Notes under the pieces: generated by a model
Told to the model about the DNA's origin: nothing
The model's input: only the letters and a program-made list of their open reading frames with translations
Databases searched by the model: none
DNA from: Roseateles oligotrophus
GTDB taxonomy: Bacteria > Pseudomonadota > Gammaproteobacteria > Burkholderiales > Burkholderiaceae_C
Reading direction: 5' to 3'
NCBI RefSeq assembly: GCF_014204525.1
Contig: NZ_JACHLP010000001.1
Coordinates: 310,001-374,000 of the forward strand
DNA: 64,000 nucleotides
Made by a program: the position numbers and the translations under genes
Shown: piece by piece, positions 59,142 to 64,000 of the stretch
Numbering within the stretch: position 1 is the stretch's first letter
How the letters are laid out: each line of letters starts with the position of its first letter

Positions 59142-60647
59142 ATGTCCACACATCCAAGCGCCATGAAGAATCTGCTGCTGCTGACTCTAACTGCCTATCT
59201 GGGCGGCTGCGCCAGCCAGCTTTCGCCGCAGCGCTATTCCGAGGGGCTGCTGACGAAGCAAGGCGGCGTCTGCGGTGACAGAGCGTCAAAGTCGCTCCAG
59301 CAGGCCTTGCGCTGCACCGAGGATTTGCAGCGCCAATACGTCACGGCCCAGCGCGATCTGTCGGAGATCTCGCCCCAGCTCAGCAACGGGCTGATCGCCT
59401 GGACCGGCCTGACCCTGCTGAGCGCCACCGTCAACCCGCACGTCAAGGATTTGGCCGCCATGGGCATCGTCGGCTCCACCGCCTATGCCATGGGCAGCCG
59501 AGCCCCGGCCTCGGCCCGCATCAAGGTGTTTGCGGCCGGCGTGGATGCGCTGAACTGCGCCGTCAGGGCCGTGGCGCCCTTGCTGCCGGTGGCCGAGCAT
59601 GAGGGCGTGCTGGGGCAGCCGGTGGAAGGAACATTGCGAGGCGACCTGGCCCTGGCCGTGCAGGCAAAAACCGATTTGCAGGCCGAGCTGGGCAGGCTGG
59701 CCTATCTGAACCAGGACAGAACCCTCGCACCGGCGCAGGCCCAGTCCCTGCGCAAGGGCAGTTGCAAAGAACAAAGGCGGACATGCACTCCGCTGGAATC
59801 AGGCGGCAAGGACGACCAGGCCAACTTCGCCGCCAACTGCAAGGCCAAGCAGGCGAGCTGGGACCAGCGCTGTGGCGACAAAATCGTGCCGGCCAAGCCC
59901 GCCCAGGTCGAGCTTCCGCATGAGCGGACCGCCAGCACCTTCAAGCTCGCCCGGTGGCAGGTCAAGGAGTCCGAGGCCAACATCCAGCAGGCCCGCGTGC
60001 TGGCCCAGGCGCTGGCTGTCGCCGGCAACCTGCTCTGGAGCAAGACGCTGGAGATTCAGAACGCCGTTGGCCTGGAGGTGCAAAAAACCGAGCCCGAGCC
60101 CGACAAGGTGTTCGCCAGCATGGGCAATCTGAGCAGTGTGGCCTTGAAAATCAACCCGGGCGATGGCGGCAACAAGGGCAAGCCCGAAGGGGAAGATGCC
60201 TTGCTGAAACCAGGTGAGTTCCGCAGCAGCAAGCCGCCCACCGAACTGGCGGCGCTGAACGACAAGGTCAGCGCCGCCCGGGAACGCAGCGACGCCCTGC
60301 AAGCCTGGCTGCTGGCCGGCGCTGACTCGGCCAAGGTCGCCAGCAGCCTGGGCGGCTGCAAGCTAGGCGCCCTGGTGGTCAGCCTGAACCCGCCGGCCGG
60401 CAAGGACGAAAACGGTGGCGAGCCACCGCCCAACAAACCCGCTGCGCCCTACACGACGCTGCCCGCCGCCGTGCTGGACGGCCTGGGCGGGCTGAAGGCA
60501 GACGCCGACCCCAAGACCATTGCCAGCCGCATCAAGCAATGCCAGCAGTCGCTCAGCCAAAGTCCGACCGGCCAGATCGCGCCCGGCGACGCGACCGAGC
60601 AGGGCGTGTTGGCGGGCGCCTGCAAGAAACTGAACTGGGACTTCTGA
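59142..60647 (+). CDS. Large lipoprotein of unknown function
   Basis: A protein of 501 residues. The signal LLLLTLTAYLGGC ends in a lipobox with Cys23. The mature part has a small hydrophobic stretch near 85-105 (LIAWTGLTLLSATV) but is otherwise soluble and Ala/Lys/Glu-rich, with several Cys pairs (SLRKGSCKEQRRTCTPLE). No family is recognised. AGGAGA before ATG 59142 sets the start; an ATG seven codons later is less well placed. It heads the operon that continues through the protease/hydrolase gene (20 bases away), the membrane protein and the SH3 protein. Confidence 0.85.
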   Translation: MSTHPSAMKNLLLLTLTAYLGGCASQLSPQRYSEGLLTKQGGVCGDRASKSLQQALRCTEDLQRQYVTAQRDLSEISPQLSNGLIAWTGLTLLSATVNPHVKDLAAMGIVGSTAYAMGSRAPASARIKVFAAGVDALNCAVRAVAPLLPVAEHEGVLGQPVEGTLRGDLALAVQAKTDLQAELGRLAYLNQDRTLAPAQAQSLRKGSCKEQRRTCTPLESGGKDDQANFAANCKAKQASWDQRCGDKIVPAKPAQVELPHERTASTFKLARWQVKESEANIQQARVLAQALAVAGNLLWSKTLEIQNAVGLEVQKTEPEPDKVFASMGNLSSVALKINPGDGGNKGKPEGEDALLKPGEFRSSKPPTELAALNDKVSAARERSDALQAWLLAGADSAKVASSLGGCKLGALVVSLNPPAGKDENGGEPPPNKPAAPYTTLPAAVLDGLGGLKADADPKTIASRIKQCQQSLSQSPTGQIAPGDATEQGVLAGACKKLNWDF

Positions 60648-60667
60648 GAAGACAGGAGGCGATCCCC

Positions 60668-61667
60668 ATGAACATCCCGCCCGCACTGCTGCGCATCCGC
60701 CACCAACTGCGCCAGCTCATGGCCGGCCCCGCGGACGCCGCCAAACTGGCCCGCCGCATCGGCCTGCATGAAGACGCGCTCGCCCATCTGCTGCAAGTGC
60801 GCTGCGCCGTCCAGCCCTCGGACGGGCCGCACCAGCTCGGCCTGGGCCTGGCCGCCGCGTGCCCGGCCCCGGCCATGCCCCACTATCTGCTGGACCCACT
60901 GGACGGCAGCCGCGTGCCGGTGCGCAGCCAGCGCTGCAGGCGCGGCCGACTGCAAGCCGCGTGGATACGCAGCCAGAACAGCCAGAGCGGCCGAACAGTC
61001 GGCAGCCTGGGCGGCCTGCTGGTACAGCGCCAATCGCCAAACCTGCAATTCGCACTGACCGCCGGCCATGTGCTGGCGGGCGATCCGAGTTGCAAGACCA
61101 GCGACACCGTGGACTTCTACCCCGACCCGTCCCCGCAACTGAGCTGCCAGGGCCGGCTCTACGGCTGGGGGCCTGACTTCGTCCGGCCCAGCCAGGACAA
61201 CCGGCTCGACGCCGCCGTCGCCAGCATTGGGCCCGAGCAGGTGCAGCAATTGCTCAGGCAAGGCTGGCAGCTCCCGATCGGCGCTGCGCCCGTGCCCTGG
61301 CATGAGACCTTGCAACTGCGCACCCGCAGCCGGCATTTGCCCGCCCAGGCGCGGGCCACCAATCTGTGCCAAATGGGCAGGGACGATGGCATGCCTGATT
61401 ACTGCATCGTCGATGGCCTGGAGTACCAGGTGGATGACGGCACCGATGCCGGCGACAGCGGTGCCCCCATCTGGGACTCCCGAGGCCGCTGGGTGGCCAT
61501 GCACGTAGGGGCCATCGAGGGCGGGAGCAAGAGCGGCGCCAATGCCATCGCCCTCCCCCTGGGCCGGGTGCTGGACTGGTGGTCGGCCGAGGTGCTGACG
61601 CAAGCCCATCTGGCTGCGCCCTCAAGCCCCCGCCCGGCCACCCTGCCCCCCGCCCCCCCCCGCCCCC
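60668..61667 (+). CDS. Trypsin-like serine protease, N-terminal part of a frameshifted protease-hydrolase fusion
   Basis: About 330 residues are credible. A helical N-terminal domain (LARRIGLHEDALAHLLQV) is followed by a chymotrypsin-fold protease with a full triad: His134 in ALTAGHVLAG, Asp181 in NRLDAAVAS and Ser264 in DAGDSGAPIW. No signal peptide is obvious. AGGAGG lies eight bases before the ATG. A Pro-rich linker then enters the C6-G-C9-G-C5 tract at 61646-61667. Beyond it this frame stays open to 62254, overlapping the next gene, but encodes only Arg/Pro-rich nonsense, while the next frame encodes a SleB hydrolase. The true product is probably about 471 residues, ending at 62084 in the other frame. 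Confidence 0.85.
61646..61667 (+). repeat. Interrupted poly-C tract (C6-G-C9-G-C5) at the frame switch
   Basis: It sits exactly where the protease frame must shift by +1 to enter the SleB frame. Loss of one C (C9 to C8) would join the two with a linker reading PPAPPAPLPPTKQADVL. It could be a phase-variable switch, a programmed slip site or a base-count error. Confidence 0.8.
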
Positions 61668-62084
61668 TTGCCGCCCACCAAACAAGCCGATGTACTCGCC
61701 CGCACGATCTGGGGCGAAGCCGGCGGCGAGGCCGAGCCCGAGGCGGCCATGCGGGCCGTGGCCTGCGTGGTGCTGAACCGGGTCAAACGGCAAACCTACT
61801 GGGGAAAAACGATTGCCGAGGTCTGCCGCAAGCCCTACCAGTTCAGCTGCTGGAACAGCGGCAGCACCCGCCTGCCCGCCATGCGCGCGGCCGACGCCCG
61901 CACGCCCAACTTCACGCTGGCCTGCCAGATCGCCCAGCTGGCTGTGCAGGACCAACTGCCCGACAGCACCCAGGCCGCCACCCATTTCTACGCCCCCAAG
62001 CTGGTGGCCCCGCCGCGCTGGGCCCAGGGCCGCGCCAGTTGCGCGCGCATCGGCGGCCACCTCTTCTTCAACAACATCCCCTGA
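61668..62084 (+). CDS. SleB-type cell wall hydrolase domain, C-terminal part of the frameshifted fusion
   Basis: About 138 residues matching the Hydrolase_2/SleB family of lytic transglycosylases: LARTIWGEAGGE with the catalytic Glu, AVACVVLNRVKRQTY, and KPYQFSCWN. It ends GGHLFFNNIP. Independent translation is unlikely: the frame has a TGA at 61596-61598, no ATG or GTG before the domain, only a TTG at 61668, and no ribosome site. It should therefore be read as the second domain of the upstream protease. It is followed after 15 bases by the membrane protein gene. Confidence 0.82.
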   Translation: MPPTKQADVLARTIWGEAGGEAEPEAAMRAVACVVLNRVKRQTYWGKTIAEVCRKPYQFSCWNSGSTRLPAMRAADARTPNFTLACQIAQLAVQDQLPDSTQAATHFYAPKLVAPPRWAQGRASCARIGGHLFFNNIP

Positions 62085-62099
62085 CGAGGCGAGTCAATC

Positions 62100-63797
62100 A
62101 TGGACACAAGAATGTTGGACGTGGTGATCGGCCTGGTGCTGGTCTTTGCCCTCACCAGCCTGCTGGTCACCGCCTGGCAGGAGGCCCTGGCCTCCTTGAA
62201 GAACAGCCGGGGGGAGAACCTGCAAAAAGCCGTCACCTCGCTGCTGGGCGATGACGCCGCCTTCGCCGGCCGCCTGATGAGCCACCCCTTGCTGCTGTCG
62301 CTGGCGATGGAGCGGCCGGGCAAGACCCAGCGCTCGCCCTCCTACATCTCGCCCGATGTGTTCGTCAACGCCTTGCTGGCTCAGCTGACGAGCGACTACA
62401 CCGGCGGCCTGCGGCCCGCCACCCCGGCCGACCTGGTGGCCCATCTGCAGCAAAAGCTGCCGCCCGGGCAACAAAAATTCGGCGCCAGCCTGGCCGCCCT
62501 GCTGCCCGGCGCCGAGCAGGACTGGTCAGCTTATGAAACCCGTTTGGCCGCCTGGTTCAATGCCGTGGGCGAACGCTCCATCGGCTGGTTCAAGCGCGGC
62601 ACACAGGCGCAGATGTTCGCGGCCGGCCTGGTGGTGGCGGCGGCCGTGAATATCAATCCCATCCTCATCACCCAGGCCCTGTGGTCGGACGCTGCGCTGC
62701 GCAAATCCGTCGCGGCCCAGGCCGAGCTGGCCGTGCAGGCCTATCAAAAGGAAACCGGCCTGGGCGAAGCCAAGCCTGCACCCACCGACAAGGCCGCACC
62801 CGTGCTGCAACTGGCAAGCAGCCGCCAGGCCACGCTGGACCTGATCGAGGCCCTGCTGAAACCCGCCAACGCCCAGGGCCTGCCGGCAGCCACCGAGGCG
62901 GATGACTTGCTGCGCAGCAGCTACAAGATGAAGGAATTACTCAACCCAGAGAGACCCGCCAGCCTGGCCGAGTTGCAGCACCAGGTGGACAAGCTGGGGG
63001 CGCAATTGAAGGGCTCCGGCCTCGATCAGCATGCGGCCACCGCCGCCCTGGTCAAGACGCTGCAAGGCCGCATCCAGGCCCTGAGCCCGGCCGACGCTGC
63101 CGCCAGCGCCGTGCTGGCCAGCGCCTGCTCGCCCAAGCTCAGCGCCGAGGACCACCACCTCTGCGCCCAGGATGAGCTGAAGAAGAAGCTGGAAGGCCTG
63201 GGCCTGCCGCTGGGTTGGGCGCAGGCCGGCCTGCCCACCGTATGGGCCACGCATTGCAATGGCGGCTTGCCCGCCGGCACGTTCAAGGCCCCCGACTGCA
63301 CGCCGGGCGAAAAAATGGCCGAGGCCGCCTGGTGGGGCAATCTGCTGCTGGCCCTCGCGGGCTGGTTGGGCACGGCCATGGCCGTCACCCTGGGCGCGCC
63401 TTTCTGGTTCGACCTGCTGGGCCGGCTGGTGAAGATTCGCGGTGCCGGTGGCAAGCCCGACGAGGCAGGCAGTACGGGCGCAGCCGCGCCCAGCACCCTG
63501 AGCAAGAGCGAGGCCCCACCCGCAGTCGGTGCCGGCGGCCCGACCCAGGAGGCCAGCGACGACGCCCTGAACGATGACGAGCGCAAATTAACGCCCATCC
63601 AGATCGGCACCCTGCAAAAACGCCTGCGCATGGCCGCCAGCGACATCTCGCTGCGCCTGGACATCAAGACCCGCGACGCCATCAAGGCCTGGCAGACCCA
63701 AGCCTTTGGCCAGGGCGACGGCCTCTTGAACGCCCAGCAAATCCAGCAATTGCTGAGCGCCGATTTCGACCCGCAGGACGACGGCTATCTCGGCTGA
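62100..63797 (+). CDS. Large membrane protein with C-terminal peptidoglycan-binding-like domain, function unknown
   Basis: A protein of 565 residues. An N-terminal membrane helix (MLDVVIGLVLVFALTSLLVTAW) leads into a conserved-looking head (NLQKAVTSLLGDDAAFAGRL). A second helix lies near 180-200 (FAAGLVVAAAVNINPILI) and two more near 410-445 (WGNLLLALAGWLGTAMAV). Between them lies a soluble region of about 200 residues. The last ~70 residues (IGTLQKRLRMAASDISLRLD, TRDAIKAWQTQAFG) resemble a PG_binding_1 helix bundle. No family is recognised with certainty. It is co-directional and 15 bases from both neighbours. Confidence 0.8.
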   Translation: MDTRMLDVVIGLVLVFALTSLLVTAWQEALASLKNSRGENLQKAVTSLLGDDAAFAGRLMSHPLLLSLAMERPGKTQRSPSYISPDVFVNALLAQLTSDYTGGLRPATPADLVAHLQQKLPPGQQKFGASLAALLPGAEQDWSAYETRLAAWFNAVGERSIGWFKRGTQAQMFAAGLVVAAAVNINPILITQALWSDAALRKSVAAQAELAVQAYQKETGLGEAKPAPTDKAAPVLQLASSRQATLDLIEALLKPANAQGLPAATEADDLLRSSYKMKELLNPERPASLAELQHQVDKLGAQLKGSGLDQHAATAALVKTLQGRIQALSPADAAASAVLASACSPKLSAEDHHLCAQDELKKKLEGLGLPLGWAQAGLPTVWATHCNGGLPAGTFKAPDCTPGEKMAEAAWWGNLLLALAGWLGTAMAVTLGAPFWFDLLGRLVKIRGAGGKPDEAGSTGAAAPSTLSKSEAPPAVGAGGPTQEASDDALNDDERKLTPIQIGTLQKRLRMAASDISLRLDIKTRDAIKAWQTQAFGQGDGLLNAQQIQQLLSADFDPQDDGYLG

Positions 63798-63812
63798 ACA
63801 AAGGAGAACATC

Positions 63813-64000
63813 ATGAGCACCCCACTGGCCGACTACACGGCCGCACCGCAGCAACTCAAGGTACGCGCCAAGCTGAATCTGCGCGTCGGCCCCAGCACGG
63901 CGACGACCCGCGTCGGCCGCGCCCGGCCGGGCGAGGTGCTCAGCGCCGACCAGTTGCTGGACGCCGAGCCCTATCTGAACAGCAGCCACTGGTACCGCCA
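63813..64000 (+). CDS. SH3b-domain protein (cut by right window edge)
   Basis: Only 62 codons are visible: MSTPLADYTAAPQQLKVRAK, then LNLRVGPSTATTRVGRA and a domain tail with HWYR. LNLRVGPS is the bacterial SH3b signature, normally a peptidoglycan or protein-binding module. AAAGGAGA precedes the ATG. It is 15 bases after the membrane protein gene and belongs to the same operon; what follows is outside the window. Confidence 0.75.
   Translation, partial: MSTPLADYTAAPQQLKVRAKLNLRVGPSTATTRVGRARPGEVLSADQLLDAEPYLNSSHWYR

What the first reader, a model, noticed from the sequence alone, without database searches (positions are those of the whole stretch)
60668..62084. Trypsin-like protease joined to a SleB cell-wall hydrolase across a poly-C frameshift
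The protease frame runs into a C6-G-C9-G-C5 tract, beyond which it makes only Arg/Pro-rich sequence, while the +1 frame encodes a clean SleB domain with no start codon of its own. One fewer C gives a natural Pro-rich linker between the two enzymes. A gene controlled by tract length would switch between protease alone and protease plus muramidase.
Basis: partly seen in the sequence, partly recalled or inferred. Interest (0 to 1): 0.72.

Follow-up and report, generated by a model that had tools for sequence, protein, structure and literature searches.

The report
Protease–wall-hydrolase gene split at poly-C
A bacterial gene that related species carry as one unbroken protease-plus-cell-wall-cutter is thrown out of frame in this assembly at a run of nine Cs that the relatives lack, so the break is more likely a reading error or a chance slip than a built-in switch; the double enzyme itself looks like a real and little-described part of a wall-degrading gene set.

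Summary
In detail: a trypsin-fold protease frame (60668 on) meets C6-G-C9-G-C5 (61646-61667), beyond which SleB lies in the +1 frame (to 62084). One detail is wrong: SleB has a TTG (61668), though after an almost pure C stretch. The switch reading is not supported. In 31 of 31 other distinct genes found with both halves, the two share one open frame, and no C/G run exceeds 6. A C9 arises in about 13% of synonymous encodings of such a Pro-rich linker at local codon usage. Neither half shows decay. Of 20 long C/G tracts in this genome with clear coding signal on both sides (46 tracts in all), this is the only one read as splitting a gene. So the natural gene is a protease-linker-SleB fusion, and this copy carries an isolated frame offset: a base-count error or recent slippage. 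Phase variation and leaky +1 frameshifting are not excluded. More interesting is the cassette: lipoprotein-like protein, protease::SleB, membrane protein with a weak PG-binding match, and M15 peptidase; five paper searches listed no description of it.

The parts
59163..60647 (+). Cassette gene 1: lipoprotein-like protein (MKNLLLLTLTAYLGGCASQ start; the lipobox reading is recalled), no Pfam family
   Evidence: blastp matches before the fused gene in at least 6 of 11 relative loci (list of hits cut at six)
60668..61642 (+). Cassette gene 2, protease half: trypsin-fold serine protease with His/Asp/Ser motifs, preceded by a helical N-terminal region
61643..62254 (+). Out-of-frame continuation of the protease frame as assembled (Arg/Pro-rich, stop at 62252-62254; overlaps the next gene by 155 bases)
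61646..61667 (+). C6-G-C9-G-C5 tract in the interdomain linker; C9 at 61653-61661; place of the frame offset
61668..62084 (+). Cassette gene 2, SleB (Hydrolase_2) half in the +1 frame; +1 frame open from 61599; TTG at 61668 after an almost pure C stretch
62100..63797 (+). Cassette gene 3: membrane protein (three hydrophobic segments by a simple Kyte-Doolittle scan) with a weak, below-cut-off PG_binding_1 match at its C-end
63813..64000 (+). Cassette gene 4, start of an M15_4 peptidase gene that runs past the window edge to G000:C1:374607

Best explanation
The gene is a member of a family of two-domain enzymes, a trypsin-fold serine protease joined by a short flexible linker to a SleB/Hydrolase_2 peptidoglycan hydrolase, and is the second gene of a recurring cassette with a lipoprotein-like protein, a membrane protein with a weak peptidoglycan-binding match, and in several genomes an M15 peptidase. 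In this assembly the frame of the fused gene is offset by one base in a C9 tract in the Pro-rich linker. That offset is most likely not a function: it is either a base-count error in a difficult stretch or a recent slippage mutation in the sequenced clone. The likely working of the intact enzyme (inference): a protein without an obvious signal peptide whose protease half controls its hydrolase half, for instance by cutting the flexible linker, so that with the membrane and envelope partners the peptidoglycan is attacked at a chosen moment. Shown: fusion in relatives, catalytic residues kept in the window and nearly all relatives aligned, folds, recurring neighbours. Inferred: enzyme activities, location, proteolytic control, and the cause of the offset.
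For: Fusion in one frame in 31 of 31 other distinct genes with both halves. No tract in them: longest C/G run 4-6 in 30, none of 6 or more in L247. The linker of the L085 model holds the only segment below pLDDT 50 (326-343). The window keeps 13 of 14 protease columns and 35 of 40 SleB columns that are at least 85% conserved in the others, rank 12 and 5 from the worst of 31, so neither half is visibly decaying. The other three cassette genes are open. Of 46 C/G tracts of 8 or more in the genome, 20 have clear coding signal on both sides: 14 sit in one unbroken coding frame (two of length 9), 2 have the other strand, 4 a same-strand frame change, and three of those 4 read as neighbouring genes with their own starts; only this one reads as a split gene. 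The tract has a 13% chance at local codon usage.
Against: The sequencing method and reads of this genome are not known to me, so error and real mutation cannot be told apart. That only one tract is affected argues against an error-ridden assembly, and so mildly for a real frame state. The three neighbouring-gene readings were not checked by homology (L072 is the weakest), and 26 of 46 tracts say nothing. No near-identical relative of the gene was found (best-scoring protease match in the genus 35% identity), so the length in sister strains is unknown. The list was capped at the best 80 and may favour unbroken genes. SleB retention ranks fifth from worst of 31, slightly low.
Confidence: 0.8

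Rival explanations
1. Phase variation: replication slippage in the C9 tract switches the gene between protease alone (with a long Arg/Pro tail) and the full double enzyme.
For: C9 lies in the linker of an otherwise intact gene; of 20 long tracts with coding signal on both sides it is the only one read as splitting a gene; homopolymer phase variation is known in Neisseria (PMC5084427, start of abstract in a search listing only).
Against: No tract in 31 relatives; such a run is expected by chance in about 13% of synonymous encodings; C9 or longer occurs in 17 of 18 genomes of the genus; the off state would give a 528-residue protein whose tail overlaps the next gene by 155 bases, not a clean truncation.
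Confidence: 0.1
2. Recoding: a fraction of ribosomes (or RNA polymerases) slips at CCC-CCC-CGC into the +1 frame and makes some fused enzyme, so the gene works at reduced level from the sequence as assembled.
For: The frame-0 codons at the tract end are CCC CCC CGC, and CCC-CG is the sequence at which the UGG tRNA-Pro can shift to +1 and +2; CCC-C next to a start codon gave up to 1% +1 shift in E. coli (PMC4519876, passages read). The needed direction is +1.
Against: In the same paper the +2 shift, which does not give the SleB frame, dominates at CCC-CG, and non-programmed +1 events are put below 0.003% in general; no stimulator was looked for; the site is not conserved in relatives.
Confidence: 0.05
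3. Two separate genes: the SleB half starts on its own at TTG 61668.
For: A TTG lies at 61668 (138 aa open frame).
Against: The bases before it are nearly all C, with no purine-rich ribosome-binding-like stretch; 31 of 31 other genes with both halves are fused.
Confidence: 0.02

Closest known systems
Hydrolase_2 / SleB (Pfam PF07486; Bacillus spore cortex-lytic enzyme, PDB 4f55, 4fet) and SleB-type phage endolysins
   Same: The C-terminal half: Hydrolase_2 1.1e-21, 4f55 by sequence E 1.7e-4 with the Glu motif aligned, three PHROG endolysin families
   Different: NCBIfam's spore SleB equivalog is far below cut-off (40.1 of 236.5 bits). The 80 best viral relatives (capped list) match only from about query residue 306 on, that is linker and SleB.
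Trypsin-fold serine proteases (alpha-lytic protease 2alp, Lysobacter L1 5mrr, rice NAL1 8pmg)
   Same: Fold of the N-terminal half (Foldseek E about 1e-10 to 1e-6) with His, Asp, Ser invariant in the 25 sequences aligned (L105-L108 were not in that alignment, and L108 has lost H and D columns)
   Different: 12-16% identity in the rows cited; fused to a wall hydrolase; no signal peptide evident by a crude scan
Csp proteases and SleC of Clostridium perfringens (protease that activates a wall-hydrolase precursor)
   Same: A protease that controls a peptidoglycan hydrolase; the idea is recalled, and I saw only the title of Shimamoto 2001 in a reference list
   Different: Csp are subtilisin-type and on separate genes (recalled); relation by analogy only
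Trypsin-like peptidase conflict systems of multicellular bacteria (PMC7159879)
   Same: Trypsin-like peptidases in operons with effectors, some aimed at peptidoglycan (passages read)
   Different: No SleB, cell wall hydrolase, amidase or M15 in the main text by term search; no PADLOC match for the four window proteins scanned (the M15 protein was not scanned)

Membership tests
Hydrolase_2 (PF07486) | Profile score above the curated cut-off | tested here: met
   77.7 bits against 27
Hydrolase_2 (PF07486) | Catalytic Glu motif kept | tested here: met
   WGEA aligns with YGES of 4f55; this Glu is invariant in the 23 relatives of A6; its catalytic role is recalled
Spore cortex-lytic enzyme SleB (TIGR02869) | Equivalog cut-off | tested here: not met
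   40.1 of 236.5 bits
Trypsin-fold serine protease | Trypsin_2 profile cut-off | tested here: not met
   17.5 of 27.6 bits for the window; of 8 relatives scanned only L004 passes Trypsin_2 (31.7) and L003 passes Trypsin (23.2 of 20.6)
Trypsin-fold serine protease | Fold and catalytic triad | tested here: met
   Model pLDDT 90.2, PDB matches, H134, D181, S264 invariant in the 25 aligned sequences, window included
Trypsin-fold serine protease | Proteolytic activity | not testable with these tools
   needs an assay
Phase-variable gene with a homopolymer tract | Tract inside the coding frame whose length sets the frame | tested here: met
   C9 at 61653-61661 with the coding frame changing at it
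Phase-variable gene with a homopolymer tract | Tract conserved or recurrent in homologues | tested here: not met
   longest C/G run 4-6 in 30 relatives, none of 6 or more in L247
Phase-variable gene with a homopolymer tract | Length differs between cells or isolates | not testable with these tools
   no reads or sister isolates; exact flank not found in viral contigs
Programmed +1 frameshifting | Conserved slippery site | tested here: not met
   relatives read both halves in one frame and lack the tract

The most novel reading that the evidence does not exclude
In this strain a tract newly arisen in the linker lets single cells switch by slippage between a protease alone and a protease carrying its own wall hydrolase, so that a wall-degrading cassette is armed in only part of the population.
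Probability: 0.1. Interest if true: 0.7.

Novelty: new variant of a known kind. Interest (0 to 1): 0.35.

Why it matters
As a switch it would be an unusual case of poly-C phase variation, with a wall hydrolase as the switched part; the evidence points away from that. What stands is a recurring fusion of a serine protease and a SleB hydrolase within a peptidoglycan-directed cassette, in 31 other genes, mostly Burkholderiales by record titles (order assignments recalled); five paper searches (two of them with capped lists) listed no description of it. It gives a concrete question: does the protease release or restrain the hydrolase? It also warns that a single base in a homopolymer can hide such a fusion from annotation.

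Tried and rejected
Close relatives: the first genome-contig scan with the window protease alone found no relative; plasmids and an exact tract-flank search of viral contigs gave nothing; the cap for the metagenome collection reads 0, so I did not try it. L005 (G009) is a weak N-terminal match with stops and was dropped. In the family search (399 genomes drawn from a larger group, at most 4 candidates scored in each) 12 genomes besides G000 matched: 9 hold both halves in one frame, and 3 only one half (G078 and G377 SleB, G234 protease); L022 is a protease-only second match in G117. The script stopped with an error at L021, so L021 and L022 rest on the table. In one search the C/G runs were measured from the start of the protease match to the end of the SleB match. 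The script stopped at L109 (GQSG in place of GDSG), so it printed 24 linkers; one search repeats the analysis with that row handled. In the order sample (399 genomes, E 1e-20, at most 4 candidates scored) 6 genomes besides G000 matched: one fused gene (G486, L247), four SleB only, one protease only (G639, L253). L247 was listed with one TGA inside; reading the frame showed it before the protease half, so it counts as fused.

Considered and left: a decayed pseudogene (no further lesion seen); an assembly full of homopolymer errors (26 of the 46 tracts have at least one side not clearly coding and say nothing); a defence system (no PADLOC match for four proteins). My in-house gene calls missed the fused gene in L075 and the protease half in the window, and gene 1 of L074 has no blastp match, so neighbour counts from it are lower bounds. 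The link with contractile-injection genes (Pvc16_N in 9 of 12 genomes with the fused gene, 7 of 23 without) used comparison genomes chosen by hand and no correction for kinship, so I draw no conclusion.

Full report
Observation. The protease frame starts at ATG 60668 and runs into C6-G-C9-G-C5 at 61646-61667; as assembled it goes on in Arg/Pro-rich sequence to a stop at 62252-62254. SleB lies in the +1 frame, open from 61599 and ending at 62084, with Hydrolase_2 at E 1.1e-21; it is the only Hydrolase_2 match in the genome. A codon model trained on 34 open frames of the window puts the coding frame change at the tract. One claim needs correction: a TTG lies at 61668, though the bases before it are nearly all C; the next ATG (61749) lies inside the domain.

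The protease half. Its Pfam match is weak (17.5 of 27.6 bits), so I folded it on an alignment of 25 sequences (the window and 24 of the 28 named relatives; L105-L108 were left out): pLDDT 90.2. Foldseek finds trypsin-fold proteases: rice NAL1 at about 1e-10, Lysobacter L1 protease at 5e-8 and alpha-lytic protease at about 1e-6. His134, Asp181 and Ser264 are invariant in that alignment; against this, L108 has lost the conserved H and D columns.

Relatives. Of 18 genomes of the genus, 3 carry the gene, the window's own included; the other two read both halves in one frame (477 and 468 aa). In a sample of 399 genomes of the family 13 matched, the own one included; 9 of the other 12 hold both halves in one frame, 3 only one half. 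A split gene would score lower in that ranking, so the list may favour unbroken ones. Among them, by record title, are Roseateles toxinivorans, Mitsuaria, Aquabacterium humicola, Ideonella alba, Massilia, Polaromonas glacialis, Rhodoferax and Peristeroidobacter soli. The longest C or G run is 4-6 in 30 of them, and L247 has none of 6 or more. The 24 linkers printed are short and often Pro/Ala-rich; in the L085 model residues 326-343 are the only segment below pLDDT 50.

Is this copy decaying? It keeps 13 of 14 protease columns and 35 of 40 SleB columns that are at least 85% conserved in the others; rank 12 and rank 5 from the worst of 31. SleB identity given protease identity is 2.5 points below the fit; five others lie lower. 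The neighbouring cassette genes are open. So the offset is isolated.

Is the assembly full of such breaks? The genome has 46 C/G tracts of 8 or more. By coding signal within 150 bases on both sides: 14 unbroken (two of length 9), 4 with a same-strand frame change, 2 with the other strand, 26 with at least one side not clearly coding. Of the 4, three read as neighbouring genes with their own starts (L029, L042, L072; not checked by homology, L072 the weakest); the fourth is this tract. This argues against a generally bad assembly, but one error in a C9 flanked by C6 and C5 is still likely enough. Tracts of 9 or more occur in 17 of 18 genomes of the genus, and a Pro-rich linker gives one in 13% of synonymous encodings at local codon usage. 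The tract needs no selection to explain it.

Mechanism. My reading: a fused protease-SleB enzyme with a chance C9 tract, offset by one base in this record through error (about 0.45) or real slippage without function (about 0.35). A selected switch gets 0.1 and recoding 0.05. Recoding deserves mention because the codons at the tract end are CCC CCC CGC, and CCC-CG is the sequence at which tRNA-Pro(UGG) shifts to +1 and +2; up to 1% +1 shift was seen when CCC-C followed the start codon. The same paper finds +2 dominant and puts general +1 errors below 0.003% (PMC4519876, passages read); adding that point on re-checking, I lowered recoding from 0.07.

The cassette. Neighbours of the fused gene recur in the 11 relative loci examined: a lipoprotein-like protein before it (blastp match to the window's in at least 6 of 11; none in L074); after it a protein with an N-terminal hydrophobic stretch and a weak PG_binding_1 match (blastp match to the window's in at least 5 of 11); then in the window, L076 and L082 an M15_4-type peptidase, which in L077 and L083 is fused to gene 3 (Pfam was run on the window, L077 and L082 proteins, while L076 and L083 rest on blastp matches). 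In L080 the fourth gene looks like an amidase with a PG-binding repeat (my reading of the sequence, not a profile result). The window halves and three relatives show no hydrophobic segment in a simple scan, so I infer that the fused protein is cytosolic or exported by an unusual route. Proteolytic release of the hydrolase through the linker is inference; the analogy with Csp and SleC is recalled.

Literature. Three searches aimed at the fusion and two at related conflict or lysis systems listed no paper that describes it by title or abstract start; one search listed 15 of 54 and one search listed 12 of 136. Of PMC7159879 and PMC2605481 I read passages found by term: the first has trypsin-like peptidase conflict systems but no SleB; the second has no Hydrolase_2 in its main text. 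The library is open-licence only.

Verdict. Observation confirmed; fusion supported; switch not supported. Interest 0.35, carried by the recurring double enzyme and its cassette rather than by the frameshift.

Noticed in passing
window 59163-64000 and L073:314-1108: Four-gene peptidoglycan-directed cassette; the fourth gene varies (M15 peptidase here and in L082, fused to gene 3 in L077 and L083, amidase-like in L080 by eye).
   Followed up: partly
L076:15375-17999; G000:C2:595236-595841: In the Roseateles toxinivorans genome (G102) the cassette lies about 3.8 kb from contractile-injection genes (Pvc16_N by Pfam; a sheath-like protein by recall, no Pfam match). Pvc16_N occurs in 9 of 12 genomes with the fused gene and 7 of 23 hand-chosen genomes without.
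   Followed up: partly
L108:3617-5113: A fused protein whose protease has lost conserved His and Asp columns (H>E, D>F), probably the catalytic ones, while SleB is kept: perhaps a pseudoprotease. L109, from the same metagenome-assembled genome, is a second fused gene with GQSG.
   Followed up: no
L081:15680-18001: A protein with TCAD7 and CHAT domains lies about 3 kb downstream of the cassette in G404.
   Followed up: no
G003:C1:461694-461750 and G003:C41:435643-435671: Very long poly-C/G runs in another genome of the genus (21 and 35 bases split by one base; 19 and 9 split by one base).
   Followed up: no
IMG/VR loci L167-L246: The 80 best viral relatives (capped list) match only the linker and SleB part of the query, not the protease.
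   Followed up: no
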